Shown: positions 3,285 to 25,951 of the stretch, one piece after another
Position numbering within the stretch: position 1 is the stretch's first letter
Layout of the letters: each line of letters opens with the position of its first letter
From: a virus
Reading direction: 5' to 3' (one strand)
Length of the DNA stretch: 64,000 nt
Virus record (IMG/VR): IMGVR_UViG_3300025133_000027
Span: 1 to 64,000 of that record
Translations under genes and position numbers: made by a program
Notes under the pieces: generated by a model
What the model was told of the DNA's origin: nothing
Seen by the model: the letters and a program-made list of their open reading frames with translations, nothing else
Databases searched by the model: none

Positions 3285-3359
3285 CGAAACCGGATGTTTC
3301 CTCCTGAGCACGAGGATTCACCTCGCTTGCTACGCAAGCATTAAACAAAACTGCTTTAC

Positions 3360-3667: not shown

Positions 3668-3775
3668 ACTCCGCTGATTGTATTGCGCCTCTTTAGAGGT
3701 AGCGCGGATCATTGATGCCTTAAAAGTGGCATAAGGCCTAAGCAAGCCTTGGTCAGAGAAACTGCTTAAAACCAT

Positions 3776-3851: not shown

Positions 3852-3979
3852 AAATAAACGTCACCTGGGTATATGACTTGGTGTGGTCCGTTTTTAGTAG
3901 TGCTCTGTTGTAAACACGACATCACCTAATCCGCACACGCTAAACTACCCGCCCTCAAGTCTAGAAAAACTGTTTATAC

Positions 3980-4060
3980 AGGGTTGTATCGCCTCGTCCT
4001 GATAAGACGTAGAAAGCGTAATCTGGTTACATGTGAGTTCAAATCTCACCTGCCCTACCA
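3980..4060 (+). tRNA. tRNA-like, Ile(GAT) by anticodon
   Basis: Acceptor AGGGTTG/CTGCCCT (one mismatch), anticodon hairpin around loop CTGATAA (GAT), a variable-arm hairpin GTAA-TCTGG-TTAC, T arm GTGAG-TTCAAAT-CTCAC and encoded ACCA. The D region is only about 7 nt, so the D arm is missing or reduced. Preceded directly by AAAAACTGTTTATAC. Confidence 0.6.
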
Positions 4061-4304
4061 TAATGAAGCGTGTGACAGTAGTTCTTAGATATGGTTAAGT
4101 TCGTACATCACAAATGTCCTCCTGAGCATGAGGTTGCGCCCAATAAACTGTTCCATAACATAGGAGGACCTGAATAATCTGCATGATCACGCGGCGCGTG
4201 GTGGTGTGGGCCTGTCCGTCAAAACTGTTCACCATACAGTGGCTTTCTTCTTATGAAGTTTGCTGACACACCTCCTTAGCACGAGGGAGCCCAAAACTGC
4301 TAAT

Positions 4305-4312
4305 TATAAATA
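4305..4312 (+). promoter_or_regulatory. T4-late-promoter-like TATAAATA
   Basis: TATAAATA lies 45 bases before the next ATG. It matches the T4 late consensus, but only one such site is well placed in this window, so it may be chance. Confidence 0.25.
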
Positions 4313-4356
4313 TCACTGGCAAAAACTATATAACGAAAAAAAATACGGAAAATAAT

Positions 4357-4647
4357 ATGACACACAAGAAAGTAAACAGCCTCTTCTACTTTGAGGCGAA
4401 AGATCCCGATCCAGTTTACATGCAGTTTGGTATTCAGATCACAATAGTGCCTAAACACTTTTACGATACAGAAGGGTATATGTATGATGAACATATCTCT
4501 ACTCTTCTTGAAGTTCTAGGTGGGAAAGCCCCTGACTACATGGGAGAAGAGTGCGAGGGAACGTTCTCAGCAGAGAGTAAGACTCTTGAAGAGGTAATCA
4601 AAGATCTCAAGGACCTTGGCTTCGAAGAGAAAGTCTTCTCTTTCTAG
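4357..4647 (+). CDS. Hypothetical protein
   Basis: 96 residues, ATG start with upstream GGAAAATAAT. Acidic, with a beta-strand-rich N half and a C-terminal helix (residues 77-90, TLEEVIKDLKDLGF). No recognised domain. Ends just before promoter P4 and the second tRNA group. Confidence 0.7.
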   Translation: MTHKKVNSLFYFEAKDPDPVYMQFGIQITIVPKHFYDTEGYMYDEHISTLLEVLGGKAPDYMGEECEGTFSAESKTLEEVIKDLKDLGFEEKVFSF

Positions 4648-4671
4648 AAAGATTAGCTGCTTATCTATCCA

Positions 4672-4700
4672 TTGAACAATAAGTCAAATCTAGATATAAT
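4672..4700 (+). promoter_or_regulatory. Promoter P4 of second tRNA group
   Basis: TTGAAC at 4672-4677, a 17-nt spacer with AAGTC and a consensus TATAAT at 4695-4700, 20 bases before tRNA-Arg. Confidence 0.85.
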
Positions 4701-4720
4701 GAGAGGGTGAAAAGAATAGT

Positions 4721-4798
4721 GCCTCTGTGGCTCAACTGGATAGAGCATTTCGCTACGAACGAAAAGATTTGCAGGTTCAAATCCTGCCGGGGGCTCCA
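4721..4798 (+). tRNA. tRNA-Arg(ACG)
   Basis: Acceptor GCCTCTG/CGGGGGC, D arm GCTC-AACTGGATA-GAGC, anticodon arm TTTCG-CTACGAA-CGAAA (ACG), T arm GCAGG-TTCAAAT-CCTGC, discriminator T with CCA. Canonical cloverleaf. Confidence 0.95.
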
Positions 4799-4830
4799 TG
4801 GAAAAACAGAGTAATACAGAATAGAACAAA

Positions 4831-4921
4831 GGAAAGTAATTTAGATAGGAGTCTAAGCTGGTTTGCTAAACCAAGCGCACTCTTCATGGGGTGTGGGGAT
4901 CAAGACCTCTACTTTCCGCCA
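4831..4921 (+). tRNA. tRNA-Ser(GCT)
   Basis: Acceptor GGAAAGT/ACTTTCC, anticodon loop TTGCTAA (GCT), long class II variable arm, encoded GCCA. The T loop reads ATCAAGA rather than TTCAANN. Confidence 0.9.
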
Positions 4922-4942
4922 ACGAGTTGTTTATAAGACAAT

Positions 4943-5020
4943 GGTGGCTATCGTCCAATCTGGTTAGGACACAGAACTGTGAATTCTGGAATGAGGGTTC
5001 AAATCCCTCTAGACACCCCA
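4943..5020 (+). tRNA. tRNA-His(GTG)
   Basis: Anticodon arm CAGAA-CTGTGAA-TTCTG (GTG), T arm GAGGG-TTCAAAT-CCCTC and CCA. The acceptor fits the His pattern with an encoded extra G(-1) pairing with C73; one mismatch remains in the stem. Confidence 0.93.
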
Positions 5021-5033
5021 CAAGGTTAATAAA

Positions 5034-5300
5034 ATGGAAACTAATCAACTAACACTTGCAAAAAAGATGTCATTTGCACAGATAAACAATTGTGTTTTCA
5101 TGGATAAAGATGAAGATTGGTTTGTTATCATTTTGTGGAATCGAAAACATAATCGTCTTGACGCAGCAGAATATGATCTGGAAGACGACCACTTACGTTA
5201 CTATGGAGCAATAAAACTTGAGACCTGGATCGAGAAGGAAGACAAGAACTTAGGAAAGATTCCAATTTATGGACTAGAAAACTTTCCAAATAAATTATAA
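5034..5300 (+). CDS. Hypothetical small protein
   Basis: 88 residues; ATG 13 bases after tRNA-His, with AAGGTTAATAAA upstream. Beta-rich, with hydrophobic runs (FVIILW near residue 31), acidic overall. Sits between two tRNA genes. Its end (GKIPIYG..FP) loosely recalls the YPVF-tail family, but I would not include it. Not recognised. Confidence 0.7.
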   Translation: METNQLTLAKKMSFAQINNCVFMDKDEDWFVIILWNRKHNRLDAAEYDLEDDHLRYYGAIKLETWIEKEDKNLGKIPIYGLENFPNKL

Positions 5301-5317
5301 AATAAATGGATAAACAA

Positions 5318-5389
5318 GTCTATATAATTCAGTGGTAGAATACCTGATTCATACTCAGGCAGTCGTTGGTTCGAATCCAGCTATAGGCA
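5318..5389 (+). tRNA. tRNA-Met(CAT), elongator or Ile2
   Basis: Acceptor GTCTATA/TATAGGC, D arm ATTC-AGTGGTA-GAAT, anticodon arm CCTGA-TTCATAC-TCAGG (CAT), T arm GTTGG-TTCGAAT-CCAGC, discriminator A, no encoded CCA. Position 1-72 is paired, so not an initiator. CAT could be read as Ile if C34 were modified to lysidine. Confidence 0.9.
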
Positions 5390-5419
5390 CTTTAAGCAGA
5401 TAAACTCATGGAGTTGTAA

Positions 5420-5698
5420 ATGCGGACAAACATGAGAGATCCTCGTTCTGAGGATGGAGTTTTTAATTCCCGAGATCTGCATGGGCAACTTGTTGACTGC
5501 ACTTATTATGAAAATGAAGTATATTTCATACTCTTTATCTGGGATAAAGAACGACACTACATGAGAAAGACTTCCTATTATGGAGATGAAGTCAGCAACC
5601 CTCCAGAAAGAAAAACGAATAAAGTCTTCGCAGTATGTTCTTTCTTACAGAAAGAAAGTTTTATCTTCTTAGGAAGATACCCAGTTTTTTCAGCCTGA
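5420..5698 (+). CDS. YPVF-tail small protein
   Basis: 92 residues, ATG start with GGAG about 7 bases upstream. Beta-rich protein with YFILFIWD near residue 35, ending in FIFLGRYPVFSA. This C-terminal RYPVF motif recurs in many small genes of the 26-30 and 41-43 kb clusters. Its last 8 bases overlap the 5' end of tRNA-Cys. Function unknown. Confidence 0.75.
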   Translation: MRTNMRDPRSEDGVFNSRDLHGQLVDCTYYENEVYFILFIWDKERHYMRKTSYYGDEVSNPPERKTNKVFAVCSFLQKESFIFLGRYPVFSA

Positions 5699-5763
5699 TC
5701 ACGGGATGTGTTAAAGTGATTGCAAACCACTCTATCTGAGTTCGAATCTCAGCAGGTTGTCCA
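5691..5763 (+). tRNA. tRNA-Cys(GCA)
   Basis: Acceptor CAGCCTG/CAGGTTG, anticodon loop TTGCAAA (GCA), T arm CTGAG-TTCGAAT-CTCAG, encoded TCCA. It overlaps the stop region of the preceding gene and is followed with no gap by the next ATG. Confidence 0.92.
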
Positions 5764-14869: not shown

Positions 14870-15155
14870 AATCAGGAACTTGCGAAAGCTCAATGATCTC
14901 AAAGGCTTAGAAAAAGCTATTGATCTCAAAGGCTTAGAAAAAGCTCAATGATTTTCATGTGTTAAGAAAACTGAATCATTTCATGAGGTTAGCAAAAACC
15001 TAATAAAGTCAAAAGGTTAAAGAAATCCAATGATTACCGTGAGTTACGATAACCGAATGGTTTCGGGGAGTTACCTTTATCTAATGATTTCGGGGAGTTA
15101 TGAGAGTCTAATAAATTCAGTAAGTTACCTTTGTCCAATGATTTCAGGTAGTTAC
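14861..15155 (+). repeat. Array of eleven 22-nt repeats, 27-28-nt period
   Basis: Units start at 14861, 14889, 14917, 14944, 14971, 14999, 15026, 15053, 15080, 15107 and 15134, separated by 5-6-nt spacers. Consensus near YCNAATGATTTCRGGGAGTTAC. Degenerate, noncoding, head to tail. Not CRISPR-like, because spacers are too short and repeats too variable. Single copies of the same unit occur before many genes up to 25.6 kb, where its GGGAGTTAC part is the ribosome-binding site. Confidence 0.9.
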
Positions 15156-15263
15156 TGAATGAGGGACTGCAAAGCAGTTGCTACAACCCCATGGTTTTAT
15201 TGACTAAACTGAGTATCTCAGGACCCTAATTATTTGTCAAGATGAGGTAAGGTCGTGTAATCA

Positions 15264-15482
15264 TTGAGGAAACACGATATATGGGCAATTCACAAGTCTT
15301 CACATTCTCAAAATGAGACACCAATGATATTGGGCACTTACGATGTGGAAATATGGAACACGCGCCCGATCTTGCTTGACTTGCAAGTCCTTGAAATCAT
15401 TGAGGTTCTCTGCGGTGGTGAAAAATCCCCCAACTATACAAACATCAACCGAATATTTGTCGAATGCCCACTAGACGAATGA
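15264..15482 (+). CDS. Hypothetical protein, start uncertain
   Basis: Up to 72 residues from TTG 15264; an in-frame ATG at 15324 would leave about 52. No good ribosome site for either. Contains a plausible fold (TYDVEIWNTRPILLDLQVLEIIEVL). Could be real, given codon use similar to its neighbours, but support is modest. Confidence 0.4.
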   Translation: MRKHDIWAIHKSSHSQNETPMILGTYDVEIWNTRPILLDLQVLEIIEVLCGGEKSPNYTNINRIFVECPLDE

Positions 15483-15890
15483 GTGGATTTGAGGCCGTTT
15501 CAAAATGATCGCGTTTACAGCAACAATTACAGAGACTTCCAGCTCCACAAACGTCAAGTTGGGCATTTTGAGCCGGATCTGGCCGATCTGCCCTCCGCTA
15601 AGTGCCTGAAATCACACACCGGGCAACAGGGCTTGGCGAAAGGCTGGCTATTGAGGGCCGGTTCTGCCATAATCCGGGGGCGGCAAGGGAAACAACCTGA
15701 GCCGGCCCGAAAGGGAGCCTGCGCGGCTCTAACCGGGCGATTTTTAACCTATTCCTTGTCACACCACTGCGCGTGGTCAGACATTCAGGAAAAGGCTAGC
15801 AGAATCAATACCTTAGCAGGTGTGTTGGTAGTACGCTGGAAAAGCTCAATGAAAACTAGTGGTCAAACGTGGTCGGAAAGACTATAGCAG
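15483..15890 (+). ncRNA. Candidate structured RNA, GC-rich
   Basis: This stretch is markedly GC-richer than its surroundings. GGGCCGG near 15654 pairs with CCGGCCC near 15701, enclosing TGCC/GGCA, and several further short stems are possible. A continuous reading frame crosses it but encodes nothing protein-like. I could not match it to RNase P, tmRNA, 6S or SRP RNA signatures. Confidence 0.45.
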
Positions 15891-16008
15891 TAAGTACCTA
15901 ATGCCATTAGGGAAAAGCCTGCAAGCCTTGGGTTAGAACGAGGGCTAAGTAGTCAATTACGATGGTCGGCAGTAGAATCGGCGCACGGTAAGTATATAGA
16001 ATGATAAA

Positions 16009-16078
16009 GCAATCGCACGCTAGGTGCGGCAAGGGCTCAAACCCCTTGTTAGGGTTCGATTCCCTAACGATTGCGCCA
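16009..16078 (+). tRNA. Compact tRNA-like gene, anticodon CAA
   Basis: 70 nt. Acceptor GCAATCG/CGATTGC, a 3-bp D arm with a 5-nt TAGGT loop, anticodon arm AAGGG-CTCAAAC-CCCTT (CAA, Leu), almost no variable loop, a 6-bp T stem around TTCGATT, and encoded GCCA. Leu tRNAs are normally class II, so this is aberrant and may not decode. Confidence 0.55.
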
Positions 16079-16115
16079 AGTTGCAAGGGGTGGACATAAA
16101 CATATCCCCTTGCAA
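16079..16115 (+). terminator. 10-bp hairpin, terminator-like
   Basis: TTGCAAGGGG and CCCCTTGCAA pair perfectly around a loop of about 14 nt, followed by TTTC. It follows the tRNA-like gene directly. Confidence 0.5.
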
Positions 16116-16118
16116 TTT

Positions 16119-16192
16119 CGGGGGGTTAGAAAGATAAAGGTCCGTCGAGGGTGCGCGGTTATGCGCCAAGGCCCTGAGCTAACTCCCCAATT
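16119..16192 (+). ncRNA. Closed-stem structured RNA
   Basis: GGGGGGTTAG pairs with CTAACTCCCC (10 bp, one G-T) around inner stems AGGG/CCCT and GCGC/GCGC. The inner hairpin ends ATGCGCCAAG, echoing the GCCA ends of neighbouring tRNA-like elements. Confidence 0.5.
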
Positions 16193-16197
16193 TATAA

Positions 16198-16248
16198 CGA
16201 TATTTGCTGGTTGCCTTGCAAGGGTTCAAATCCCTTGAAATATCGCCA
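16198..16248 (+). tRNA. Mini tRNA-like element (acceptor and T arm only)
   Basis: 51 nt. Acceptor CGATATT/AATATCG, about 14 nt of connector, T arm CAAGGG-TTCAAAT-CCCTTG and encoded CCA. No D or anticodon arm, so it cannot decode; it resembles a tRNA minihelix. Confidence 0.55.
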
Positions 16249-16261
16249 AGTTAGAAAGCCA

Positions 16262-16290
16262 TAGGCCGAAAAGTCGGGCTAGGCTATACT
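16262..16290 (+). promoter_or_regulatory. Promoter P8
   Basis: Poor -35 (TAGGCC) but the shared AAGTC spacer element at the usual distance, TATACT at 16285-16290, then GAGAGGGTAGAAAGG. Upstream of the AT-hook gene. Confidence 0.6.
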
Positions 16291-16483
16291 GAGAGGGTAG
16301 AAAGGAAGGACGCGAACGAAAATGAAGCGGCTTCACGATGCTGAATGATTTCAGCTAGTTTCGAAGGGCTTTGCAGCAAAGTCGAAATCGGTTATCCTAT
16401 CTATGCGAAATGGTTGAGGTTCTAGGTTGAACCTTACGGAATAATGAGAACGAACCCTCTAAGGGTTCAAAGGATACGTGAAA
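16291..16483 (+). other. Leader with short upstream frames
   Basis: Contains an 8-codon frame ATG..TGA (MKRLHDAE) at about 16321 overlapping a copy of the AATGATTTCAG repeat unit, and hairpin AGGTTC/GAACCT near 16420. Possible translational control of the following gene. Confidence 0.35.
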
Positions 16484-17209
16484 ATGAGTGTTATTGTTGA
16501 GGATTTTGATTCGTCGGTTGTTTTCTCCAAGGGTGAGGGCAACGACGTTGCTAAGGTCACGTTTTCAAAGGAGGATTTGCCGCTTGTAGCGGTTGTTATC
16601 CAAGCCCTTGATAAGAAACGGACTCCGAAGGGCGCTGCTCGCGTGGCTTCTTCGAAGCTCACTAAGATCGGCTATGCCGTGCGTGAGAAAACTCGTCGTG
16701 ATTCCGACGTGTTGCGAGTCGCTGAGTCGCTGGCAAACTACGGGATGTTGACGAAAAAAGTGAGTGAAAACAAGATGTTCACTTACTTTGAGCCAAACGC
16801 TGAGTTTGACTCGGAAGTTGGTGATTCTGTTAAGGAAAAGGCTGCCGGTGCCTTTCGTGAGAAAGTAAAGGCAGTTGCGAAGGATAAGGCTTCTAAGCCT
16901 GCTTCCAAGCGTTCCGGTCGCCCTCGCAAGACTGCATCACAGGAGGACTTCGAAGCCCTTGTGAAGCGTGTGGACGCCCTTGAGGCTGCGCTTGCTGGCA
17001 CTGAGTCGAATGAGGACGCGAAAGCGTCTGACAGCGATTCTGAAGCTTCCGAGGCTGATACCTCGGAAGTCGCTGAAGTGACTCAGGATTCTGAGGATGA
17101 GACGGAAGGTGAGGAAATTACTGACCTTTCCGAGTGCTCCCCTGAAACCCTTGCACTTCTCGCGGCTTGCGAGGACGAGGACGAGGACGATGAAGCCGTC
17201 AACGGCTAA
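16484..17209 (+). CDS. AT-hook protein with acidic tail
   Basis: 241 residues; ATG 16484 preferred over in-frame GTG 16478 because AGGAT is then 8-9 bases upstream. N-terminal alpha/beta domain (1-110) with winged-helix-like helices, a basic segment with an AT-hook core SGRPRK (about 147-152), a coiled-coil stretch (FEALVKRVDALEAALAG), then a very acidic C-terminus rich in Asp, Glu and Ser. This architecture suits a DNA-binding or transcription-modulating early protein. The gene is GC-richer than its surroundings, and its own promoter suggests high expression. Confidence 0.8.
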   Translation: MSVIVEDFDSSVVFSKGEGNDVAKVTFSKEDLPLVAVVIQALDKKRTPKGAARVASSKLTKIGYAVREKTRRDSDVLRVAESLANYGMLTKKVSENKMFTYFEPNAEFDSEVGDSVKEKAAGAFREKVKAVAKDKASKPASKRSGRPRKTASQEDFEALVKRVDALEAALAGTESNEDAKASDSDSEASEADTSEVAEVTQDSEDETEGEEITDLSECSPETLALLAACEDEDEDDEAVNG

Positions 17210-17309
17210 GTCCTCGATTTCATAGGGAAAAGCGTTAGGGCGCTGCGATGGTTTGGACCCTGAGAATCCTACCATTGCCCCTGTGAACTGGGATCTGTAG
17301 TGATTCCGA

Positions 17310-17363
17310 CTAGTTAGCATGATGGATGCGATAGCGCGGGTTCAAATCCCGTCTAACTAGCCA
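17310..17363 (+). tRNA. Mini tRNA-like element
   Basis: 54 nt. 8-bp acceptor CTAGTTAG/CTAACTAG, a 16-17-nt connector (CATGATGGATGCGATA), T arm GCGGG-TTCAAAT-CCCGT, encoded CCA. No anticodon arm. Same design as 16198-16248 but unrelated in stem sequence, so stem pairing rather than sequence is conserved. Confidence 0.55.
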
Positions 17364-17643
17364 AGATGATTGAATTAATTGGGCGAGCGACTTGCCGGAA
17401 GGTCGCAAGTGAGTGGAATGTGATGGTTTGCACCTAAGTTCGTGTTTTCCTTGGCATTAGGAAGGCACGTTAAATATCTTGAACGATTGCAGGCACTTTG
17501 AATCTCTAGCCTGTAGAATCCTGATAAACACAACGAAATCAAGAGGTTATAATGGTTCGAAGTCGTGATGGTCCCGCAAGGGTTTAATATTACTAGGAAA
17601 GATTAGTAAGTCCGCGTGTTGCGGCAGCTTTCCGCAACAAAAA

Positions 17644-17713
17644 CACAAGGTTAGCAGCAAAGGGCTGCAATCGTGAATGATTTTAGCGGGTTCGACTCCC
17701 GCGCCTTGTGCCA
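17644..17713 (+). tRNA. Aberrant tRNA-like element
   Basis: 70 nt. Acceptor CACAAGG/CCTTGTG, hairpins GCAGC/GCTGC and AATC/GATT in place of D and anticodon arms, T arm GCGGG-TTCGACT-CCCGC, encoded CCA. No loop has a proper U33 and anticodon. The second hairpin coincides with a copy of the GAATGATTTTAG repeat unit. Confidence 0.5.
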
Positions 17714-17880
17714 GGAAAAGCGGAACAATATCGGGTAGTTACAGGTATTTAGGCAGAGTCACTGAAAAACTCCATAAAGTCAGTGACTTAATGCCGCCTG
17801 TGATCGGCTTGGACGTATAGACGGGGCGGGCGACGAAAAACCGTTGCCTATTGCATACTTAGAGGGCGTTCCGCTTTTCC
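17714..17880 (+). ncRNA. Candidate ncRNA closed by a 13-bp stem
   Basis: GGAAAAGCGGAAC (17714-17726) pairs perfectly with GTTCCGCTTTTCC (17868-17880), followed by TTT. Inside, TCACTG/CAGTGA and AGGC/GCCT stems are possible. It starts at the base after the CCA of the preceding tRNA-like element, so both may be cut from one precursor. Confidence 0.6.
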
Positions 17881-18212
17881 TTTAATACCACGAAAGTGTG
17901 AGTAATATTCGCTAGTTGCGATGGTCTAATAGAAATTGACTAATTGCCGTTGCCACTCGGCGCAATCCTTTGAAATTGTTGGGCTTTCCCACTCAAGCTG
18001 AAAAGCTGAACAATTGACATTGGTTGCGAGGCTGGTACAACTCTCCAATATTGCTCCACTTTCCCAATACAGGGTCCAGCCCTAACTGGCGGTTATCGTT
18101 GTCGAAATCAGCGAGGCAATAAACTTGAACAATATCAGGAGCATAGAGTGGTACTTCTTTTGTTTGATATATAAATCCAGTGAATTCAGGGAGTTGTGCA
18201 TGACTGCCCTGG

Positions 18213-18279
18213 ATCACTGATGTAAGACCTTGAAATTAAAGGGAAAAGCCTGGAAGTTTCAAGGTCTTACATCAGTGAT
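18213..18279 (+). repeat. Perfect 23-bp inverted repeat
   Basis: ATCACTGATGTAAGACC... at 18213-18235 is the exact reverse complement of 18257-18279, with a 21-nt purine-rich loop. It lies 30 bases before the next gene and has no U-run, so it is not a classic terminator. Confidence 0.9.
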
Positions 18280-18308
18280 GATTAAGCCAACGATTACAGG
18301 GAGTTACA

Positions 18309-18530
18309 ATGAACCTTCAAGCTTACATGGCGAACGTGCATAACGCATTGAATCGACATCGAAACTGGCGATACGGACAAGCGTTATTCAACGTGCTATT
18401 TGATATGTACCCTAACAGTGCAAACAAAGTGCGTGGAACCAATGCAGATCCTTTCTACGCTAAGAACACTAAGAGTCCGCAAGTCGGTGAATTCATGGAC
18501 TTTCTTTTTGAGGAAGCGAAACGCGGCTAA
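18309..18530 (+). CDS. Hypothetical small basic protein
   Basis: 73 residues, ATG preceded by CAGGGAGTTACA, a copy of the array unit. Helical, with aromatic-rich N half (HRNWRYGQALFNVLFDMYP). This MNLQAYMANVHNAL pattern is seen in small phage proteins of unknown role. Leader contains the 23-bp hairpin. Confidence 0.75.
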   Translation: MNLQAYMANVHNALNRHRNWRYGQALFNVLFDMYPNSANKVRGTNADPFYAKNTKSPQVGEFMDFLFEEAKRG

Positions 18531-18815
18531 GTCCGCGAAAGAACAGAGCAATTCAGGTTGAATGGTTTAGATAGTCACGCATTACTCCTAACCATTCGTA
18601 ATTGCTGTAAGTTTTCCTGGCGTGGGGAAACACCTGAAAGTCTAGTTAATTAGGATACTAATTAGGTAGCCATTGTTGAATGGTTTCAATGGGTTAGACT
18701 CCCATTGGCTTCGAGAGTCGTCGGTACGGAATCGCTAAACAATGAATATCGTTGGGGATTGTTAGTAAGCAAGCCAACTAACCATGCTGGCAAGTCTTCA
18801 TTTCCTCAACGATTA
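18531..18815. other. Noncoding, hairpin-rich
   Basis: Contains a T-arm-like hairpin CAATGGG-TTAGACT-CCCATTG near 18678 within a repeat-unit copy, and AATTAGGATACTAATT near 18647. No gene seen. Confidence 0.5.
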
Positions 18816-18894
18816 TGCGCCTTTAGCTCAGTTGGATAGAGCATCGGTCTTCTAAACCGAGGGTCACAGGTTCGAATCCTGTAAGGCGCACCCA
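18816..18894 (+). tRNA. tRNA-Arg(TCT)
   Basis: Canonical cloverleaf: acceptor TGCGCCT/AGGCGCA, D arm GCTC-AGTTGGATA-GAGC, anticodon arm TCGGT-CTTCTAA-ACCGA (TCT), T arm CACAGG-TTCGAAT-CCTGT, C73 and CCA. Confidence 0.96.
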
Positions 18895-18930
18895 ACGCAG
18901 TGAAATCATTGCGAAAATAGGAGGTTAAAC

Positions 18931-19164
18931 ATGAATGTGGTTGAAATTACTTTGCTTTCTAGGAGTGCCGGTCGTAGAAAATACGGCTATTATTTCAAGC
19001 AGGTGGATCACACTGTATTGATTAGGGAAGTATCGCAAGTTACGAACCCTGATTTTACCAGGGAACCCTTTGAGTTCGAAAAGGATTTCGTAAAAGTATC
19101 TATCAGGGATATTGACCGTGTTATTGAAGGGTTGCAGGCTATGAAGTTGCTCGTCAGCAAGTAG
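18931..19164 (+). CDS. Hypothetical small protein
   Basis: 77 residues, strong ribosome site AGGAGGTTAAAC. Basic N-terminus, then a beta/alpha fold ending in a helix (RDIDRVIEGLQAMKLLVSK). Not recognised. First of a run of very small early genes. Confidence 0.75.
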   Translation: MNVVEITLLSRSAGRRKYGYYFKQVDHTVLIREVSQVTNPDFTREPFEFEKDFVKVSIRDIDRVIEGLQAMKLLVSK

Positions 19165-19184
19165 CCGAAATCATGGAGAAAATC

Positions 19185-19352
19185 ATGAAAGCACGTAAAT
19201 ATCGAGTGATTCTGGCACGTTGCGGGATGCCACGGGTTCGAATCATCACGATTGAAGGTCGTTCGGATGCGTATGATTTCCGAAAAGCCTATGTAAATCG
19301 CAACGTTGGGTTGAAGCTGAGTGATCTAAGGGTCGTGCAGGTGCGACGATGA
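19185..19352 (+). CDS. Hypothetical very small basic protein
   Basis: 55 residues (MKARKYRVILARCGMPRVRI...), ATG preceded by ATGGAGAAAATC. Strongly basic, beta-alpha-beta in outline. Its TGA overlaps the next ATG by 4 bases. Confidence 0.65.
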   Translation: MKARKYRVILARCGMPRVRIITIEGRSDAYDFRKAYVNRNVGLKLSDLRVVQVRR

Positions 19353-19552
19353 TTCGTAACCAACGGGATTCAAACGGAATTCTAAGGCTGGTGCATCGCA
19401 CTGATATTATTGAGCAAAATGAGGATGGCGAGGTTAGCACACTAACGATTGTCTTCCTAAGCCCCAAAAAGCGCAATAATGTTATGGTGTTACGCGACCC
19501 TATAAGGGTTCTAAAGATTAGAAACGAGGCTCTTAGAATTCAGGAATTCTAA
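19349..19552 (+). CDS. Hypothetical small basic protein
   Basis: 67 residues, start coupled to the preceding gene through an ATGA overlap. Beta-strand rich with paired basic residues. No recognised domain. Confidence 0.65.
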   Translation: MIRNQRDSNGILRLVHRTDIIEQNEDGEVSTLTIVFLSPKKRNNVMVLRDPIRVLKIRNEALRIQEF

Positions 19553-19582
19553 ATAATAATAACAAGTTAGGGAGTAATTAAG

Positions 19583-19723
19583 ATGGCTAAGGGAAAGAAC
19601 GCATTCGGCAAGTCGCAAGCTCGCGGAAAGACTACGAAAAAGAAGACTCGCCAGGGTCAAGGTAAGTTCTCGAAACGAAAGGGAGATCGCAAGATGTCCC
19701 GTGGCCAGGGCAAGGCTTGTTAA
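19583..19723 (+). CDS. Very basic Gly/Lys/Arg-rich peptide
   Basis: 46 residues with about a third Lys or Arg (MAKGKNAFGKSQARGKTTKK...), ATG preceded by AGGGAGTAATTAAG. Low complexity, likely unstructured; probably binds nucleic acid. Stop followed immediately by the next ATG. Confidence 0.65.
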   Translation: MAKGKNAFGKSQARGKTTKKKTRQGQGKFSKRKGDRKMSRGQGKAC

Positions 19724-19885
19724 ATGAACGAAATAATTACGAAAATCAAGAGGTACTTTTGTCCGCATCCTATAAGTGCCCGAAAGCATGGGTATTTGCC
19801 GGAACAACCCTGGCGTTGGTCTGAGTGTTCGGAGTGTGGTAGAAAGTGGTATCATTACATAGACTTGGCGATCGTAGTCAAGTAA
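19724..19885 (+). CDS. Small zinc-ribbon protein
   Basis: 53 residues. CPHP (13-16) and CSECGRKW (about 35-42) give three Cys and a His able to bind zinc. Starts right after the previous stop. Related short 'CPHP...CxxCGR' proteins occur in phages; role unknown. Confidence 0.65.
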   Translation: MNEIITKIKRYFCPHPISARKHGYLPEQPWRWSECSECGRKWYHYIDLAIVVK

Positions 19886-19932
19886 CGTCGTGAAATTGCT
19901 AGGTTTTCTCCTAGTTATAAGGAGGTGAACCA

Positions 19933-20103
19933 ATGGCGAAAAAGCGAAAGAAGAAAAAGTTCAATGAAATCAAAGCCTTGTCACGCAAGCTTGCTATGCG
20001 TGATGGTGCATATGATGGAAGGTTCAAAGTGCGCGTAATTGCTAACAAAAAGCGCAAGACTAGCCGTGAGGCTTGTCGGAAAAGAGTTAGCGAGGAATCT
20101 TGA
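19933..20103 (+). CDS. Very basic small protein
   Basis: 56 residues beginning MAKKRKKKKFNEIKAL, rich in Lys and Arg, ATG preceded by AAGGAGGTGAACC, a near-perfect ribosome site. Expected to be highly translated and to bind nucleic acid. Function unknown. Confidence 0.7.
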   Translation: MAKKRKKKKFNEIKALSRKLAMRDGAYDGRFKVRVIANKKRKTSREACRKRVSEES

Positions 20104-20160
20104 AAGATTTCAACTAGTTAGAGGTCCGTGGGATTTAATCAAGCGATAACAGGAGGTTAC

Positions 20161-20370
20161 ATGGCAAAGCTGAGAGTCGTTAAGCGTCGAACGGTTGGCG
20201 AAGCTGTATTTTGGACGGGATCGCTGAAACGTCGCGGAATTGTTGAGAGTGTGCAGGGAAACCGATGCACGGTGTCTTGGTATACGAAAGACGGTGATTT
20301 TATTCAGAAAGATGATGGATGGCGTCACTGTGAATTGATCGACCGTGTTGCAATCGTGAGGTATATCTAA
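20161..20370 (+). CDS. Hypothetical small beta-barrel-like protein
   Basis: 69 residues from ATG 20161 with AGGAGGTTAC directly upstream; a longer in-frame start at 20128 lacks a ribosome site. Basic start, then a strand-rich core (GEAVFWTG.., RCTVSWYTKDGDF) reminiscent of an SH3- or KOW-like barrel. Last base shared with the next ATG. Confidence 0.75.
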   Translation: MAKLRVVKRRTVGEAVFWTGSLKRRGIVESVQGNRCTVSWYTKDGDFIQKDDGWRHCELIDRVAIVRYI

Positions 20371-20729
20371 TGAGTAAGGCCAAAAACACTAGCAAAGTTA
20401 AGGACTTATCTGGTGAATTTGGAGGGAACACAGTGAAAGCCTTGCTCAATTTCCCAAAGATTGCACGGACTTATATCATATCAGAAAAAGGCACGCAATT
20501 TCGTAAGATTGGAGTCAGTGTTGACGTGCGAAAGCGATTGTCAGACCTACAAACAGGAAATCCAAGAAAGCTGAATGTTATTCATGTGTTCCCAGGCAAC
20601 GTAGAAAGGTCCATTCACGCAATTCTTGAAGGATATTCAGGGGTTGCAAAAGGTGAATGGTTCGAATTGACTGATTCGGAAGTCAGTGTAATCGTTGACA
20701 CAATTCAAGAAATGTTTACAACGTGGTGA
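20370..20729 (+). CDS. T5orf172 / MUG113-type GIY-YIG-like protein
   Basis: 119 residues. YIISEKGTQFRKIGVSVDVRKRLSDLQTGNP (about 35-65) followed by an R-x-I-H at RSIHAIL and the GEWFEL motif (about 99-104) match the T5orf172 domain, a GIY-YIG superfamily branch found in phages and bacteria, thought to bind or cut DNA. Coupled to the gene before it. Substrate unknown. Confidence 0.8.
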   Translation: MSKAKNTSKVKDLSGEFGGNTVKALLNFPKIARTYIISEKGTQFRKIGVSVDVRKRLSDLQTGNPRKLNVIHVFPGNVERSIHAILEGYSGVAKGEWFELTDSEVSVIVDTIQEMFTTW

Positions 20730-21069
20730 CGGTTCCACGGTAAACATAAATAGTCTAAATAACTTAGGAGGTTATAAGACGCACAAGCAAGTCCTTGATA
20801 TGACTTGCGAAAAGTGAAACTATCAGCAACGCGGGAATGGTAATATATTCAAGGGGTTAAGAACTCCTCGTCAGGCAGGCTCATAACTTGCCCTCGCAGC
20901 CACAACCCAGCGAAATCGCTAAGGAAACTTGCCGGATGGCTTCACCATCAACTATGAGGCACGAAACTTCAATGATTTCGCTGGGTTGCACCATAACACA
21001 CCGTCAACGCTTGCAAGGCAACGCGCAGCGCATCTTGACGGTATTTACGAACAATATCAAGGAGTTATC
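20730..21069. other. Noncoding with long-range stem
   Basis: CAACCCAGCGAAATC (20903-20917) pairs perfectly with GATTTCGCTGGGTTG (20974-20988), the second arm being a copy of the array unit. GCAAGTC/GACTTGC forms a 7-bp hairpin near 20790. No gene seen apart from the leader of the next one. Confidence 0.6.
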
Positions 21070-21342
21070 ATGCAAGTGTATGTTATTCAGTATCTATACG
21101 CCTTCGAAATGGATAAGACCATTGAAGTGATTGAAATCAATGAGGATTTGCTGAAACGTAAGATATATAAAGTGTTCGAAGCAATGTTACTAGTCGAAAC
21201 AACCGGGGAAGGTAGTGAAATCTTTGATGAATCGCTGATGAAGCGAAACGGTAAGAAAATCAAAAAGTTTACCGAAGGTTGGTATACCTACGGTGATTTT
21301 GATAATGCAATTGATGTTATTATCAGAAAAGTCTATCAATAA
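21070..21342 (+). CDS. Hypothetical protein
   Basis: 90 residues from ATG 21070 (ATCAAGGAGTTATC upstream); an in-frame extension to 20929 lies across a structured RNA and lacks a ribosome site. Acidic, alpha/beta, ending in a helix. Not recognised. Confidence 0.75.
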   Translation: MQVYVIQYLYAFEMDKTIEVIEINEDLLKRKIYKVFEAMLLVETTGEGSEIFDESLMKRNGKKIKKFTEGWYTYGDFDNAIDVIIRKVYQ

Positions 21343-21357
21343 CAAGGAGTTACAACA

Positions 21358-21585
21358 ATGACTAACAAAAACAATGGGTTTCGCGTAAGGTTCTTTATTG
21401 CAAGCCGGCCCAAGCCGATAATCACTAAAGATTTCAAGGAGTTCCCCGAGGCTGCGCGTTACGCTAAAACTATGCGAAATACTTGCGGATCTGGTTGGAA
21501 ACTTTCTTATGAAAATTTCCCAATACTTTCAGCAGGTTGGGAAGACAGTCACGGTGCTTTATGTGCCATTGACCCTAACGACTAA
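21358..21585 (+). CDS. Hypothetical small protein
   Basis: 75 residues, ATG preceded by CAAGGAGTTACAACA. Basic strand-rich N half (FRVRFFIASRPKP), then a helix (FPEAARYAKTMRN). No family recognised. Confidence 0.7.
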   Translation: MTNKNNGFRVRFFIASRPKPIITKDFKEFPEAARYAKTMRNTCGSGWKLSYENFPILSAGWEDSHGALCAIDPND

Positions 21586-21614
21586 ATCACCAACAATAAC
21601 AGGGAGTTACGGCA

Positions 21615-21815
21615 GTGAGTGGATTGGAGTTGGACAAAGTGCTACATGCACGCGAAATCCTTGCGGAAATGGATATTCCGATATTCCGCAAGGATCTTCG
21701 CAAGTTGAGCAACCTAAGTTGGTTAGCTCGTAACGTCTCGATTCGAAACGGGAATCACCCGAAGCTCAATGAATTGCTCTCGATTCTGCGAGAAATTAGA
21801 AAAGAGCAAAGATAA
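21615..21815 (+). CDS. Hypothetical small helical protein, GTG start
   Basis: 66 residues from GTG 21615; CAGGGAGTTAC upstream is a full copy of the array unit. Helical and amphipathic (LDKVLHAREILAEMDI..), basic C-terminus. Not recognised. Confidence 0.65.
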   Translation: MSGLELDKVLHAREILAEMDIPIFRKDLRKLSNLSWLARNVSIRNGNHPKLNELLSILREIRKEQR

Positions 21816-21834
21816 CAGGAGGTTAACATTTCTT

Positions 21835-22056
21835 ATGAAAACTAAGTTAAAGCTATATGCACAAGCACAAGGCCGCGTAATTACTAACGTTTCTTACGAT
21901 TGTGAAATTCCTGCATTACGCGACCTTAATTTGATTTTGCTAAACCCGCTAGATCCTTGGACTTTCCAGTTTAAGGCAACCCGCCGAAAAGATAGGTTTA
22001 TTTGGACTTCAAAAACAACCATTGTCACAATGGTCGTAACTGCGCCATATGATTAG
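21835..22056 (+). CDS. Hypothetical small basic protein
   Basis: 73 residues from ATG 21835 with ACAGGAGGTTAAC 8 bases upstream. Strand-rich, basic, with paired aromatics. Not recognised. Confidence 0.7.
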   Translation: MKTKLKLYAQAQGRVITNVSYDCEIPALRDLNLILLNPLDPWTFQFKATRRKDRFIWTSKTTIVTMVVTAPYD

Positions 22057-22194
22057 TGTTTCGTGCCTGCTTGTCTTTCCTTTTGTTTTTCTGGTGTTGC
22101 CGGGGATTGAAACAGACTAATATCATTGCAGTTTTGGAATAATGAACAGCGTTCGATTCGCTGTGCTGCAACCAATTGAAATCATGGAGGAAAC

Positions 22195-22287
22195 ATGCAA
22201 TATGAGCTATGGAAGGCTGTCATTGTGTCTTTTGTCAGTTATATCGCAGTGTTTGCGGTTGCCCTGATAATTGTTACAATTACTTAA
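22195..22287 (+). CDS. Single-pass membrane mini-protein
   Basis: 30 residues (MQYELWKAVIVSFVSYIAVF...), ATG preceded by CATGGAGGAAAC. One hydrophobic helix covers residues 8-29. Possible small regulator of a membrane complex; nothing more specific can be said. Confidence 0.6.
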   Translation: MQYELWKAVIVSFVSYIAVFAVALIIVTIT

Positions 22288-22314
22288 CAAAAACAAGCAC
22301 TTAGGAGTTAACAC

Positions 22315-22590
22315 ATGGGAAGGCAATATTGTTACTTAGTTACAAAGAGCACAGGATACGAGATTGGAGATGGTCCGCAAGTCTTTGATTATAAACCCGA
22401 ATTGGTTGACGATTACCTTAATGTAGTTATCGGAACAATTACAAAGGGTAAGATGATCGTCACACTGAATCACTCTTTAGAACCTAACGGAATTGAAGGA
22501 TATATCACAGGGTTATACACAACTGATATTGTTGACGGTTGGATTCGAGTGCAAGCCATTGAGATCAATAGGAGATACGATGCCAAATAA
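22315..22590 (+). CDS. Hypothetical protein
   Basis: 91 residues, TAGGAGTTAACAC upstream. Beta-rich; VIGTITKGKMIVTLNHSLEP suggests a small barrel. Its end overlaps the next gene by 11 bases. Confidence 0.7.
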   Translation: MGRQYCYLVTKSTGYEIGDGPQVFDYKPELVDDYLNVVIGTITKGKMIVTLNHSLEPNGIEGYITGLYTTDIVDGWIRVQAIEINRRYDAK

Positions 22591-22771
22591 GAAAAGCCTT
22601 AAAAAACAACTAGCTGAAGTCAAAGCGCATAACAAGGTTTTGCGTAAGGATAACAGCAAGTTGCAAGCCAATTTGAGAAAGTCTATTCAAGACGGTTGTG
22701 ATTTGAGTGAAGAACTCAATAAAATCGCGGACTTATTGCATCCCTTGATGCAGTACGCAGATCACCTATAA
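22580..22771 (+). CDS. Small coiled-coil protein
   Basis: 63 residues from ATG 22580 (ATAGGAGATACG upstream). A heptad-like helix spans residues 4-50 (KKQLAEVKAHNKVLRKDNSKL). Likely a dimeric adaptor; function unknown. Confidence 0.7.
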   Translation: MPNKKSLKKQLAEVKAHNKVLRKDNSKLQANLRKSIQDGCDLSEELNKIADLLHPLMQYADHL

Positions 22772-22792
22772 AAACAACAACTTGGAGAACAC

Positions 22793-23035
22793 ATGAAAAT
22801 CGTCAATTATCTAAGACCAAAAACTCTCAAGAGTTTCAACAACTTGAAGATCGGACAGTGTTGCTTCGCAACCTATGACAATTGTGAGCCTTTTGTTGCA
22901 ATGGTGATCGATGGTCATGAACTCGTTGTAAACATTACGGATTCTGAGTTATACGAGATCAACGACCCAGCCCTTGAATTCATTGAGGAAATTCCGATGG
23001 ATCAGGCTCGACTAATCATCGGGAAACCTGAATAA
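22793..23035 (+). CDS. Hypothetical small acidic protein
   Basis: 80 residues. Its leader AACAACAACTTGGAGAACAC is repeated exactly before the next gene (about 23038). Beta-rich N half with three Cys, acidic C half. Not recognised. Confidence 0.7.
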   Translation: MKIVNYLRPKTLKSFNNLKIGQCCFATYDNCEPFVAMVIDGHELVVNITDSELYEINDPALEFIEEIPMDQARLIIGKPE

Positions 23036-23056
23036 AAACAACAACTTGGAGAACAC

Positions 23057-23587
23057 ATGAAAATCATCAATGAAATCAATGGCAACGAGGCCGAGTTGAC
23101 TGAGGCTGAAATCCTCTTTCTTATTGAGGACTTGGCGAGGAGCATTATTGAGTGCCAAAAGGTCAATGATTCCAAGCGGTTGTGCTTGCAAGTATCAATC
23201 AACAACATGACGAGAATCTTCAAGAAATTCAAGGGGTTGCTGGCCGAGCCGGAACCCGTTGAAACCTTTGAGATCCGTGACTTGACGACTGAAGAATTCG
23301 ATGAATTACACGCAGTTACAGACTTTTGGCACGAGGAAGGTCAAACCCCTTATAATCAATCAGATTTTGACAATTCGGTAACTCTCCGAAAACTATCCGA
23401 AAAGGTAAGTGACTGTTATTACGAGGTTTGGGAGGATTACGATTCTCTCAGTACAATCAAGGGGTTCACTCTCAAAGAGATTGAATTGGCTCTAAGTATG
23501 CTAAAGCATGACGATTTCTTCGATACCCCGTATGTGAGTGACTCCACGATCGCAAAGGTCAATAAAGCAATAAATTCAACCACTTAG
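23057..23587 (+). CDS. Hypothetical acidic protein
   Basis: 176 residues, acidic, mostly helical. First residues (MKIINEINGNEAELTEAE) resemble the previous gene's start at DNA level because the leader is duplicated. Helical repeats without a known motif. Confidence 0.7.
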   Translation: MKIINEINGNEAELTEAEILFLIEDLARSIIECQKVNDSKRLCLQVSINNMTRIFKKFKGLLAEPEPVETFEIRDLTTEEFDELHAVTDFWHEEGQTPYNQSDFDNSVTLRKLSEKVSDCYYEVWEDYDSLSTIKGFTLKEIELALSMLKHDDFFDTPYVSDSTIAKVNKAINSTT

Positions 23588-23606
23588 CAACAAAGGAAAA
23601 CACAGC

Positions 23607-23792
23607 ATGGAAAAAGCATACGGACTTACAGGGTTAACCAAGCATCAAATTGATGAATTAAGTTACACACTTAGCGTTGAGGAGCATCTTGACGACGCAA
23701 CCGTTGAGCAAGTCAGTGAAATCATTGACAACATGAATGATGATGAATTCAATAAATTCATGAACAATATCAGCAACTTGCGAGGAAACTAA
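23607..23792 (+). CDS. Small acidic helical protein, paralog 1
   Basis: 61 residues: MEKAYGLTGLTKHQIDELSY..., ending DEFNKFMNNISNLRGN. Two shorter relatives follow at 24198 and 24334, and its C-terminal DNA is repeated at about 24133. Acidic and all-helical. Last base shared with the next ATG. Confidence 0.75.
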   Translation: MEKAYGLTGLTKHQIDELSYTLSVEEHLDDATVEQVSEIIDNMNDDEFNKFMNNISNLRGN

Positions 23793-24052
23793 TGAAAATG
23801 ATCAATAAAATCTATGTAGTAGAGCTTTCGTCGCATGATGGTCGAACTCAAGCTAGCTTTAAAACTCAGCAAGGTGCCAAAAGGCTTATAGCGAGACTAG
23901 AAAAGCAAAAAAAGTTTGTTGAAGAAAACAGCAATGATCTCCGCGAACACGAACTCAGGTACAACGACAAGGAAACAGGGCAACAATTCCGATTCTCACA
24001 TATTACCTTACCCACACGTATACATTTCTATACAATGCCCCTTCATCAGTAA
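23792..24052 (+). CDS. Hypothetical protein; frame continues past stop
   Basis: 86 residues to TAA at 24050. The same frame then stays open to 24196 and encodes PTEITSEQAEMIKDSLAYF..., which resembles both the start of the gene at 24491 and, at its end (KEFNKFMNNISNLR), paralog 1. So this is either a gene split by a stop codon or a mosaic left by recombination between tandem paralogs. Confidence 0.6.
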   Translation: MKMINKIYVVELSSHDGRTQASFKTQQGAKRLIARLEKQKKFVEENSNDLREHELRYNDKETGQQFRFSHITLPTRIHFYTMPLHQ

Positions 24053-24196
24053 CCAACCGAGATCACCTCGGAACAAGCTGAAATGATTAAGGATTCTCTA
24101 GCTTACTTTGAGAATGTCATAAGCGACAAGGAATTCAATAAATTCATGAACAATATCAGCAACTTGCGAGATAAACTAGAAGCAGCAGGACTATAA
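24053..24196 (+). pseudogene. Remnant after in-frame stop
   Basis: 47-codon open stretch in frame with the upstream gene, without its own start codon or ribosome site near its beginning. Its last 45 bases nearly duplicate 23748-23785. Best read as a paralog fragment. Confidence 0.5.
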
Positions 24197-24197
24197 C

Positions 24198-24332
24198 ATG
24201 CAAAAGACATATAATATCACAGGGTTGACGCCCAGTGAATTAGCTCAGTTAGAATTTGTACTTAGAGAGTACGCGAAAAACGCCAGTCTTTACGCTGCGT
24301 TGTGGGCTAAGATCGTAACTGTAAGGAAGTAA
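24198..24332 (+). CDS. Small helical protein, paralog 2
   Basis: 44 residues, MQKTYNITGLTPSELAQLEF..., matching the N-terminal motif M.K.Y...GLT of paralogs 1 and 3 but diverging after residue 25. Weak ribosome site. Possibly a decaying copy. Confidence 0.5.
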   Translation: MQKTYNITGLTPSELAQLEFVLREYAKNASLYAALWAKIVTVRK

Positions 24333-24333
24333 C

Positions 24334-24498
24334 ATGGAAAAGACATATAATCTCATAGGGTTGACCAAGCGTCAAATTGATGAGTTAAGTTACGCACTTA
24401 ATGTAGAGGAGTGTCTTGACGACGCAACCGTTGAACAACTCAATGAAATCATTGACAATATTCAGCCAACCAAGATCATTGAGGAAACTAATGGATAA
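24334..24498 (+). CDS. Small acidic helical protein, paralog 3
   Basis: 54 residues, MEKTYNLIGLTKRQIDELSY..., about 75 percent identical to paralog 1 over the first 45 residues, with a different C-terminus. Preceded by AAGGAAGTAAC. Overlaps the next gene by 8 bases. Confidence 0.6.
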   Translation: MEKTYNLIGLTKRQIDELSYALNVEECLDDATVEQLNEIIDNIQPTKIIEETNG

Positions 24499-24835
24499 TA
24501 ATTCCAACAAAATCCACAAGGTAGAGCTATCCTCCCAAGAGCTTAGAATCATTGAGAGATCAATTGAATTCGCCAGAAGATGGGGACACTTCGATGGCTA
24601 TAAAAACCCCAATGCAATCAAGGGCTTGCAACTCAAAGCAATGGACACCCTCTCAGGAGCCATAACCCCTGATGATCACTCAGGTTCTCAGATAACAGGG
24701 CTATCCCTGCAAGACCTTGATTCCATTACGGATTGCATTGAAATAGCAGAAGGAACAGGCTATACGGAACGCTTTGATCACAATGACATTCTGGAGAGGC
24801 TGGAGGCAGCCAAGGCAACAGCCTGTAATCATTGA
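24491..24835 (+). CDS. Hypothetical protein
   Basis: 114 residues from ATG 24491 with TTGAGGAAACTA upstream. Two helical halves, each starting with a similar motif: VELSSQELRIIERSIEFA (about 10-27) and GLSLQDLDSITDCIEIA (about 75-91), so probably an internal duplication. Last gene before a 1.1-kb noncoding stretch. Confidence 0.65.
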   Translation: MDNNSNKIHKVELSSQELRIIERSIEFARRWGHFDGYKNPNAIKGLQLKAMDTLSGAITPDDHSGSQITGLSLQDLDSITDCIEIAEGTGYTERFDHNDILERLEAAKATACNH

Positions 24836-25951
24836 GCTTTTAATGAGGACTCAGGAGAGGAGCCCATAACCTCTCATTATGATTATACATTAGGGGAATG
24901 GATTGATTATCCTTTGGAACCTAGCGAAATGATTGAGAGACTTGAGTTGAGTGATTAACAGTCACTTCCAGTAGTCTATAACATATAGGTTAAATACATA
25001 ATGATTACACATACTTAGAGTAGGTGGTATCTGTTTAGTTAATGATTATAGGTAGTTGGTAGAGGCGGGTAGGGGTGTAGCTCCCATATACCACTAGGCC
25101 CTCTAATATATAGTCCTAAGTATAGGTTTTTATTGAGTTTTTCTTGTCAATAGGCAAAATAAATTAAATAAAGTTGGGCTACCCAATCAAATCAGCTACT
25201 TACACCTGTTGACAACGACTTTAACACATGATCCACGCACCTAAATAAATAAAGTTTAACGATCATGCAGGGTTACGGGACGCGGGCACCACCCCCAAAT
25301 AAAAACAGTAGTGATTCCGCAGGGTTACAGCAATGTCAAGGGGCACCGCAAAGAAATATTTCTCAGCGATAGTGCTTGACATACCTAAGCCCATAGAATC
25401 ATTGAGCTTTCCATTACAAATTAAACCCCAATGATTACAGGCACTTAGCTTTCCCAATATCATTAGGGAATAAACCTCAATGATTACAGGGAGTTAGCAG
25501 TGTCAAGTCACTGTTTAGCTTTATTCCTTAATGATTTCAATGACTTACAAAACATAATCATTAAGGAAAAAAACGTAATGATTTCAAAAGGTTGCACAGG
25601 GGGGAGGGGAACCCCCCGGTATCATAGGGGAAATCCCGGAATGTAAGTCCTTAATATCATTGGGTTTTTGCTATATAATCGACTAAGTCCGTCTCCGAGA
25701 GCTGATCAATTTTTCACAGAATCGGTTTTTGAGGTTGTCGGGGTGAACTGCACGCTCCCGAGTCCGTCCATATGACAATATTATTTTTTTTAAAAATAGC
25801 AATTCCATTTTTACAGGGGGAAACAACACCAATCTCCAATAGTTGCATATAACTTAACAAATATAGGCTGGCAGCTCTAATATAGGCTTATATTCCCTAT
25901 TTTTGGAAAGACAGTTGGTGTCGTTTTCCCTAGGGAGAGATGGAATGGAGC
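24836..25951. other. 1.1-kb noncoding tract with repeat-unit copies
   Basis: AT-rich and without genes. Array-like units occur near 25035, 25308, 25426, 25471, 25529 and 25575 (AATGATT[AT]CA-N(2)-[GA]NTTNC). Also present: poly-T/poly-A around 25784-25796, a CCCC/GGGG hairpin near 25610 and other short stems. It lies just before the first strand switches and would suit an origin or regulatory region; no function is proven. Confidence 0.5.

What the first reader, a model, noticed from the sequence alone, without database searches (positions are those of the whole stretch)
16198..17363. Mini tRNA-like RNAs: acceptor plus T arm with encoded CCA, no anticodon arm
Two elements of 51 and 54 nt have a 7-8-bp acceptor stem, a T arm with TTCAAAT and CCA, but no D or anticodon arm. 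Their stems differ in sequence, so pairing seems kept by selection. They cannot decode; they could be decoys for tRNA-cleaving or CCA-editing defences, EF-Tu ligands or aminoacylation substrates.
Basis: partly seen in the sequence, partly recalled or inferred. Interest (0 to 1): 0.8.

Follow-up and report, generated by a model that had tools for sequence, protein, structure and literature searches.

The report
Phage mini-tRNA-like RNAs without anticodon arm
A large uncultured phage encodes at least three RNA elements of about 50 bases that copy only the upper half of a tRNA, including the CCA end, and cannot read codons; they look like genuine non-decoding tRNA mimics that host tRNA-processing enzymes should recognise, but nobody has yet shown what they do.

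Summary
E1 (16199-16248) and E2 (17311-17363) each have an unbroken 12-13 bp acceptor+T stack, a TTCRANY T-loop and an encoded G-CCA, with no room for an anticodon arm. A third, E3 (22127-22174), has the same plan. A scan of the whole 176-kb phage contig that did not ask for CCA returned exactly these three, and all three end in N-CCA; 400 shuffles give 0.05 such elements per genome, 0.0075 with CCA. Between acceptor and T arm each has a tiny D-like segment containing GG, so 'no D arm' is slightly wrong. Two neighbours (16009-16078, 17645-17713) are also non-canonical: four helices but few or no linkers, as described for human mascRNA/menRNA. One similar element, without CCA, occurs in a distantly related phage. 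None turned up in about 60 other phage records or, above a high score, in 299 bacterial genomes. No relative covers the locus, so conservation cannot be tested directly. Best reading: non-decoding tRNA mimics that RNase P should cut, probably marking RNA ends in a noncoding-RNA-rich phage module. Decoy roles are possible and untested; simple tRNA decay is less likely because the stems are intact.

The parts
16199..16248 (+). E1, mini tRNA-like element (50 nt): acceptor 16199-16205/16238-16244; D-like GC-TGGTT-GC 16206-16214; T arm 16219-16224, loop 16225-16231, 16232-16237; G73 16245; CCA 16246-16248; C16198 can pair with G16245
17311..17363 (+). E2, mini tRNA-like element (53 nt): acceptor 17311-17317/17353-17359; D-like (G)CAT-GATGG-ATG(C) 17317-17329; T arm 17336-17340, loop 17341-17347, 17348-17352; G73 17360; CCA 17361-17363; C17310 can pair with G17360
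   Evidence: (Rfam tRNA model, 20.9 bits over 17311-17360)
22127..22174 (+). E3, third mini tRNA-like element (48 nt): 6-bp acceptor TGCAGT/GCTGCA, linker TTTGGAATAATGA, 6-bp T stem ACAGCG/CGCTGT, loop TTCGATT, A73, CCA
16009..16078 (+). non-canonical tRNA-like element with all four helices but almost no linkers (acceptor 7 bp, D-like CAC-GCTAG-GTG, 6-bp anticodon-like stem with 7-nt loop CTCAAAC, 6-bp T stem, G73, CCA); near-repeat of E1
   Evidence: tRNA-Sec model 25.8 bits, below cut-off; repeat D9; not called by ARAGORN
17645..17713 (+). non-canonical tRNA-like element: acceptor 7 bp, D-like GCAGC-AAAGG-GCTGC, 4-bp hairpin with 6-nt loop in place of the anticodon arm, T arm GCGGG-TTCGACT-CCCGC, G73, CCA
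   Evidence: (z -3.5); not called by ARAGORN
18668..18714 (+). doubtful, degenerate candidate: AGCCA...AATGGG-TTAGACT-CCCATT-GGCT, no CCA, wrong T-loop
   Evidence: 13.5 bits; probably not a member
16478..17209 (+). 243-aa ORF between E1 and E2, basic middle and acidic tail, no family match

Best explanation
E1-E3 (and, in larger form, the elements at 16009 and 17645) are phage-encoded, non-decoding tRNA mimics that keep only what tRNA-maturation enzymes measure: a 12-13 bp coaxial acceptor+T stack, the T-loop elbow with a GG-containing D-like segment, and an encoded N-CCA end. Inferred mechanism: they sit inside longer phage transcripts; host RNase P cuts at their 5' end and exonucleases trim back to CCA. 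This separates or caps the flanking noncoding and short-gene RNAs and leaves a stable RNA of about 50 nt, in the manner of the mascRNA/menRNA modules. Shown: anatomy, non-randomness, CCA, absence of an anticodon arm. Inferred: transcription, RNase P cleavage, the punctuation role.
For: Exactly three such elements in the genome, all ending in N-CCA, against 0.0075 expected. The total stack length is 12 or 13 bp in all five elements although the partition varies (7+6, 7+5, 6+6), the fixed distance tRNA enzymes read. None of the 13 T-arm+NCCA ends in the genome lacks an acceptor partner (by my estimate this test is weak at 6/7 pairs, stronger at 7/7 Watson-Crick). Purine-CCA at all five ends fits the RCCA contact of bacterial RNase P, and acceptor+T-stem hairpins are established RNase P model substrates (PMC11143913, PMC12710915). 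mascRNA/menRNA have a small D loop with two G, lack junction linkers, are cut by RNase P, and mascRNA is not aminoacylated (PMC11693755); the elements at 16009 and 17645 have a similar layout. In a distant phage (L080:393-445) the mini element lies about 250 nt downstream of a promoter-like site and is followed by a T-run, that is, at the apparent end of a noncoding RNA. The T4 stable RNA rnaC also ends in a T arm next to a terminal stem.
Against: No transcript or cleavage data. E1's acceptor does not form in the minimum-energy fold of its 381-nt surroundings, and E1-E3 alone fold only moderately better than shuffles (z -1.4 to -1.9). The GG in the linkers is expected from base composition. 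The C-1:G73 pair possible in E1 and E2 could shift RNase P cleavage. No relative covers the locus.
Confidence: 0.45

Rival explanations
1. They are free decoys: stable upper-half tRNAs that occupy host factors acting on the acceptor end or elbow (for example toxins that modify the CCA end, RNase P itself, CCA-adding enzyme, EF-Tu).
For: Encoded CCA at all three although several canonical tRNAs of this phage lack it; several copies; phage tRNAs are known to answer tRNA-targeting defences (PMC13096335).
Against: That precedent concerns full tRNAs. Anticodon nucleases could not be decoyed. No defence target is identified; no tRNA-repair family was found among the phage proteins scanned.
Confidence: 0.2
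2. They are remnants of phage tRNA genes that lost the anticodon arm by deletion and are decaying.
For: The genome has many tRNAs, some with irregular arms (3776, 3980, 5691); E1 resembles the element at 16009 with the anticodon-arm side missing (repeat D9).
Against: Stems are perfect (E1 13/13, E2 12/12, E3 12/12), as good as or better than those of the canonical tRNAs. E1 and the 16009 element, if homologous, differ at 6 of 13 pairs and always on both sides. No orphan T-arm+CCA fragments exist.
Confidence: 0.2
3. They are domains of a larger structured noncoding RNA of the 15-18 kb module and have no separate existence.
For: The module is GC-rich, largely noncoding around the elements and folds better than shuffles (z -2.0 and -3.0); a GOLLD RNA with an embedded tRNA lies at 2355-2797.
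Against: The elements are also scattered (E3 lies between two short ORFs at 22.1 kb) and each has its own CCA end, which an internal domain would not need.
Confidence: 0.13
4. Chance resemblance.
For: None beyond the short length.
Against: Three found, 0.0075 expected with CCA; no CCA-ended hit in the other fetched loci scanned (967 kb).
Confidence: 0.01

Closest known systems
mascRNA / menRNA (human tRNA-like modules at lncRNA 3' ends)
   Same: acceptor + T arm, reduced D loop with two G, missing junction linkers, no functional anticodon; RNase P recognition
   Different: those keep an anticodon-like stem and get CCA added; E1-E3 have no such stem and encode CCA; no sequence relation
RNase P acceptor/T-stem model substrates (McClain/Altman AT hairpins)
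   Same: nearly the same minimal architecture
   Different: synthetic; these are natural and carry a D-like segment
T4 stable RNA species 1 (rnaC)
   Same: phage stable RNA in a tRNA cluster, T arm beside a terminal stem, function unknown (the last from memory)
   Different: 139 nt with large inserted helices; no encoded CCA in the annotated RNA
Armless / minimal mitochondrial tRNAs
   Same: drastic loss of arms in tRNA-sized RNAs
   Different: those lose D and/or T arms but keep the anticodon arm; here the anticodon arm is lost
tmRNA tRNA-like domain
   Same: upper-half tRNA without anticodon arm
   Different: no mRNA-like part, no tag reading frame; no tmRNA called here

Membership tests
canonical tRNA | anticodon arm with 7-nt loop | tested here: not met
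   only 13-18 nt lie between acceptor and T arm in E1-E3; not called by ARAGORN
canonical tRNA | acceptor + T stack of 12 bp, TTCRANY loop, CCA end | tested here: met
   12 or 13 bp
canonical tRNA | Rfam RF00005 gathering score | tested here: not met
   E2 20.9 bits against 29; E1 and E3 not reported
mascRNA-like RNase P module | acceptor and T arm, small D loop with GG | tested here: met
   compared with PMC11693755; the GG alone is not statistically notable
mascRNA-like RNase P module | cleavage by RNase P at the 5' end | not testable with these tools
   needs RNA biochemistry
mascRNA-like RNase P module | anticodon-like stem present | tested here: not met
   absent in E1-E3; present at 16009 and 17645
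tmRNA | tag reading frame and pseudoknots between the tRNA halves | tested here: not met
   linkers of 13-18 nt; only the T-arm part of the tmRNA model matched E2, no tmRNA by ARAGORN
armless mitochondrial tRNA | anticodon arm retained, D and/or T arm lost | tested here: not met
   the opposite arm is lost (PMC7609411)
T4 species 1/2 stable RNAs | structural similarity detectable with the mini-element model | tested here: not met
   model R1 finds nothing in T4 at E <= 0.01

The most novel reading that the evidence does not exclude
A class of phage small RNAs reduced to the upper half of tRNA with encoded CCA, maintained as non-decoding tRNA mimics, either as natural minimal RNase P punctuation signals or as decoys for enzymes acting on the tRNA acceptor end.
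Probability: 0.5. Interest if true: 0.75.

Novelty: new variant of a known kind. Interest (0 to 1): 0.6.

Why it matters
Standard tRNA finders require an anticodon arm and miss such RNAs, so phages may carry an uncounted set of tRNA mimics. If expressed, these would be natural counterparts of the synthetic minimal RNase P substrates and a bacterial-virus parallel to mascRNA, and would allow direct tests of whether phages mimic the tRNA acceptor end for RNA processing or counter-defence.

Tried and rejected
Full-length alternative tRNAs at E1/E2: the best acceptor partner within 75 nt is the short-linker one; ARAGORN calls none of the odd elements. Direct homologs: E2 3' pattern in viral contigs, none; locus against phages, the 20 best rows all lie under the tRNA-Arg; 14900-16478 against phages and 14900-18300 against plasmids, none. 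Relatives by VWA protein (L002-L017), PhoH (L032-L079), DNA polymerase and terminase (L119-L124): two contigs (99 and 55 kb) with a 100% identical DNA polymerase, one of them also with an identical terminase, belong to the same virus but by their offsets lie outside the locus. Model R1 (built from 4 sequences, E1's extra T-stem pair left out on one side and linkers padded with N) over 49 related records found only the L080-type element clearly above the scores of ordinary tRNA parts; over 10 named large phages, matches up to 29.9 bits, and the ones inspected lie in tRNA or tmRNA genes; over 299 bacterial genomes, 13 matches at E <= 1e-4, all in canonical tRNAs (stricter filters were used there). 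E4 pattern: 23 contigs, of which 3 hold the element, identical copies. Enrichment of CCA after any long helix in the module: none. GG in linkers as evidence: rejected, expected from composition.

Full report
The window is the first 64 kb of a 176,254-base virus contig. Annotations on it (tail sheath, portal, major head protein, terminase of the T4 kind, PurZ-like enzyme, PhoH) mark it as a large tailed phage with a contractile tail. It has no close match to cultured phages: no megablast hit for 25 kb, and its 662-aa exonuclease-like protein finds only 6 weak matches. ARAGORN tRNAs in the window and 5 more at the end of the contig, and a GOLLD RNA lies at 2355-2797.

Observation. E1 (16199-16248) and E2 (17311-17363) are as described, with small corrections. 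Both have a full acceptor stem, a T arm with loop TTCAAAT, G at the discriminator position and an encoded CCA. In the predicted folds a tiny hairpin with a 5-nt loop containing GG takes the D-arm position. A third element with the same plan, E3, lies at 22127-22174 between two short ORFs; its stack is 6+6 bp and has no mismatch.

Is it chance? A first scan that asked for CCA and allowed one acceptor mismatch gave no hit in 150 shuffles of the genome or 2000 of the 7.8-kb region. The cleaner test does not ask for CCA: perfect 12- or 13-bp stack, TTCRANY loop, 7-30 nt linker. It returns E1, E2 and E3 and nothing else on either strand, and all three are followed by N-CCA. 400 dinucleotide shuffles give 0.05 hits per genome, 0.0075 with CCA. 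In 967 kb of other fetched loci the same scan finds only the element described below and one register-shifted reading of a T4 tRNA.

Neighbours. Two further CCA-ended elements close by are not canonical tRNAs. The one at 16009-16078 has acceptor, D-like, anticodon-like and T helices with almost no linker residues; the one at 17645-17713 has a 4-bp hairpin with a 6-nt loop in place of the anticodon arm. Four of the five have G73. E1 and the 16009 element share a 39-nt near-repeat including flanking bases (74%). If they are duplicates, 6 of their 13 acceptor/T pairs differ, each on both sides, none broken (read from the sequences). The repeat rests partly on positions common to all tRNAs, so the homology is likely, not proven.

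Relatives. No fetched relative covers the locus. Contigs with a 100% identical DNA polymerase belong to the same virus but lie outside the region by their offsets, and a DNA search of them for the locus found nothing. In a distant phage (VWA-like protein about 49% identical), seen as identical copies in three contigs, a similar element occurs at L080:393-445: 7+5 bp, loop TTCGATT, D-like CCT-AATTGGA-AGG, no CCA. It follows a promoter-like site by about 250 nt and precedes a T-run, consistent with the end of a noncoding RNA of about 310 nt (z -2.5). A covariance model from the four elements found no further clear one in 49 related virus records, none recognised among 10 named large phages, and in 299 bacterial genomes only canonical tRNAs at E <= 1e-4. 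These samples are limited and the large searches used stricter filters, so 'rare' is fair and 'unique' is not claimed.

Mechanism. The elements keep what RNase P and other tRNA enzymes read: stack length, T-loop elbow, purine-CCA. Acceptor+T-stem hairpins are classical RNase P model substrates, and the RCCA motif contacts the bacterial RNase P RNA (PMC11143913; PMC12710915). The human mascRNA/menRNA modules, with reduced D loop, two elbow guanines and missing linkers, are RNase P-processed, and mascRNA is not aminoacylated (PMC11693755). I therefore favour RNase P-recognised punctuation or 3'-end modules that also yield small stable RNAs. Transcription and cleavage are inferred. Weak points: E1's acceptor is not in the minimum-energy fold of its wider surroundings, and the short elements alone fold only modestly better than shuffles.

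Rivals. Decoys remain possible, but not for anticodon nucleases. Decay of tRNA genes is disfavoured by the perfect stems and the lack of orphan fragments. Being part of a larger RNA is possible for E1 and E2, less so for E3.

Novelty. Non-decoding tRNA-like RNAs are a known kind (mascRNA/menRNA, tmRNA, plant-virus tRNA-like structures; T4 species 1 RNA as a phage stable RNA with a T arm). Eight literature searches showed no report of phage tRNA mimics lacking the anticodon arm; the library holds open-licence papers only. I rate it a new variant of a known kind.

Noticed in passing
window 14974-25550: An 18-nt motif close to AATGATTTCAGGGAGTTA (up to 4 mismatches) occurs 20 times on the + strand, all between 14.97 and 25.55 kb and nowhere else on that strand of the 176-kb contig; copies at 27-nt spacing at 15029-15137; some copies end as a ribosome-binding site just before a start codon (18289, 21050). 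It may mark a separate gene module.
   Followed up: partly
window 15480-16000: GC-rich, apparently noncoding stretch that folds somewhat better than shuffles and has no Rfam, phage or plasmid match; possible large unknown RNA.
   Followed up: partly
window 3776-3851, 3980-4060, 5691-5763: Irregular tRNAs not called by ARAGORN, with apparent anticodons CAT, GAT and GCA and reduced or unusual D arms.
   Followed up: partly
window 1500-5400 and contig 174.8-176.2 kb (L023): Repeated leader-like sequences (CCTGAGCA.. and AAACTGTTxA..AT) stand just before several tRNAs of the main array; possible promoter or processing motif.
   Followed up: no
window 18213-18279: Perfect 23-bp inverted repeat with a 21-nt loop.
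   Followed up: no
window 16119-16191: Hairpin GGGGGGTTAG...CTAACTCCCC followed by A, between the 16009 element and E1; its 3' end also reads CTAACTC-C-CCA.
   Followed up: partly
window 59833-60864: Protein matching the PHROG of 2-aminooxy adenylosuccinate synthetase (PurZ-like), which may point to diaminopurine-modified DNA.
   Followed up: no
L082:1-200 (phage record G024): T arm plus TACCTCC-A-CCA followed by a terminator-like hairpin in a relative; looks like the 3' end of a phage tmRNA.
   Followed up: no
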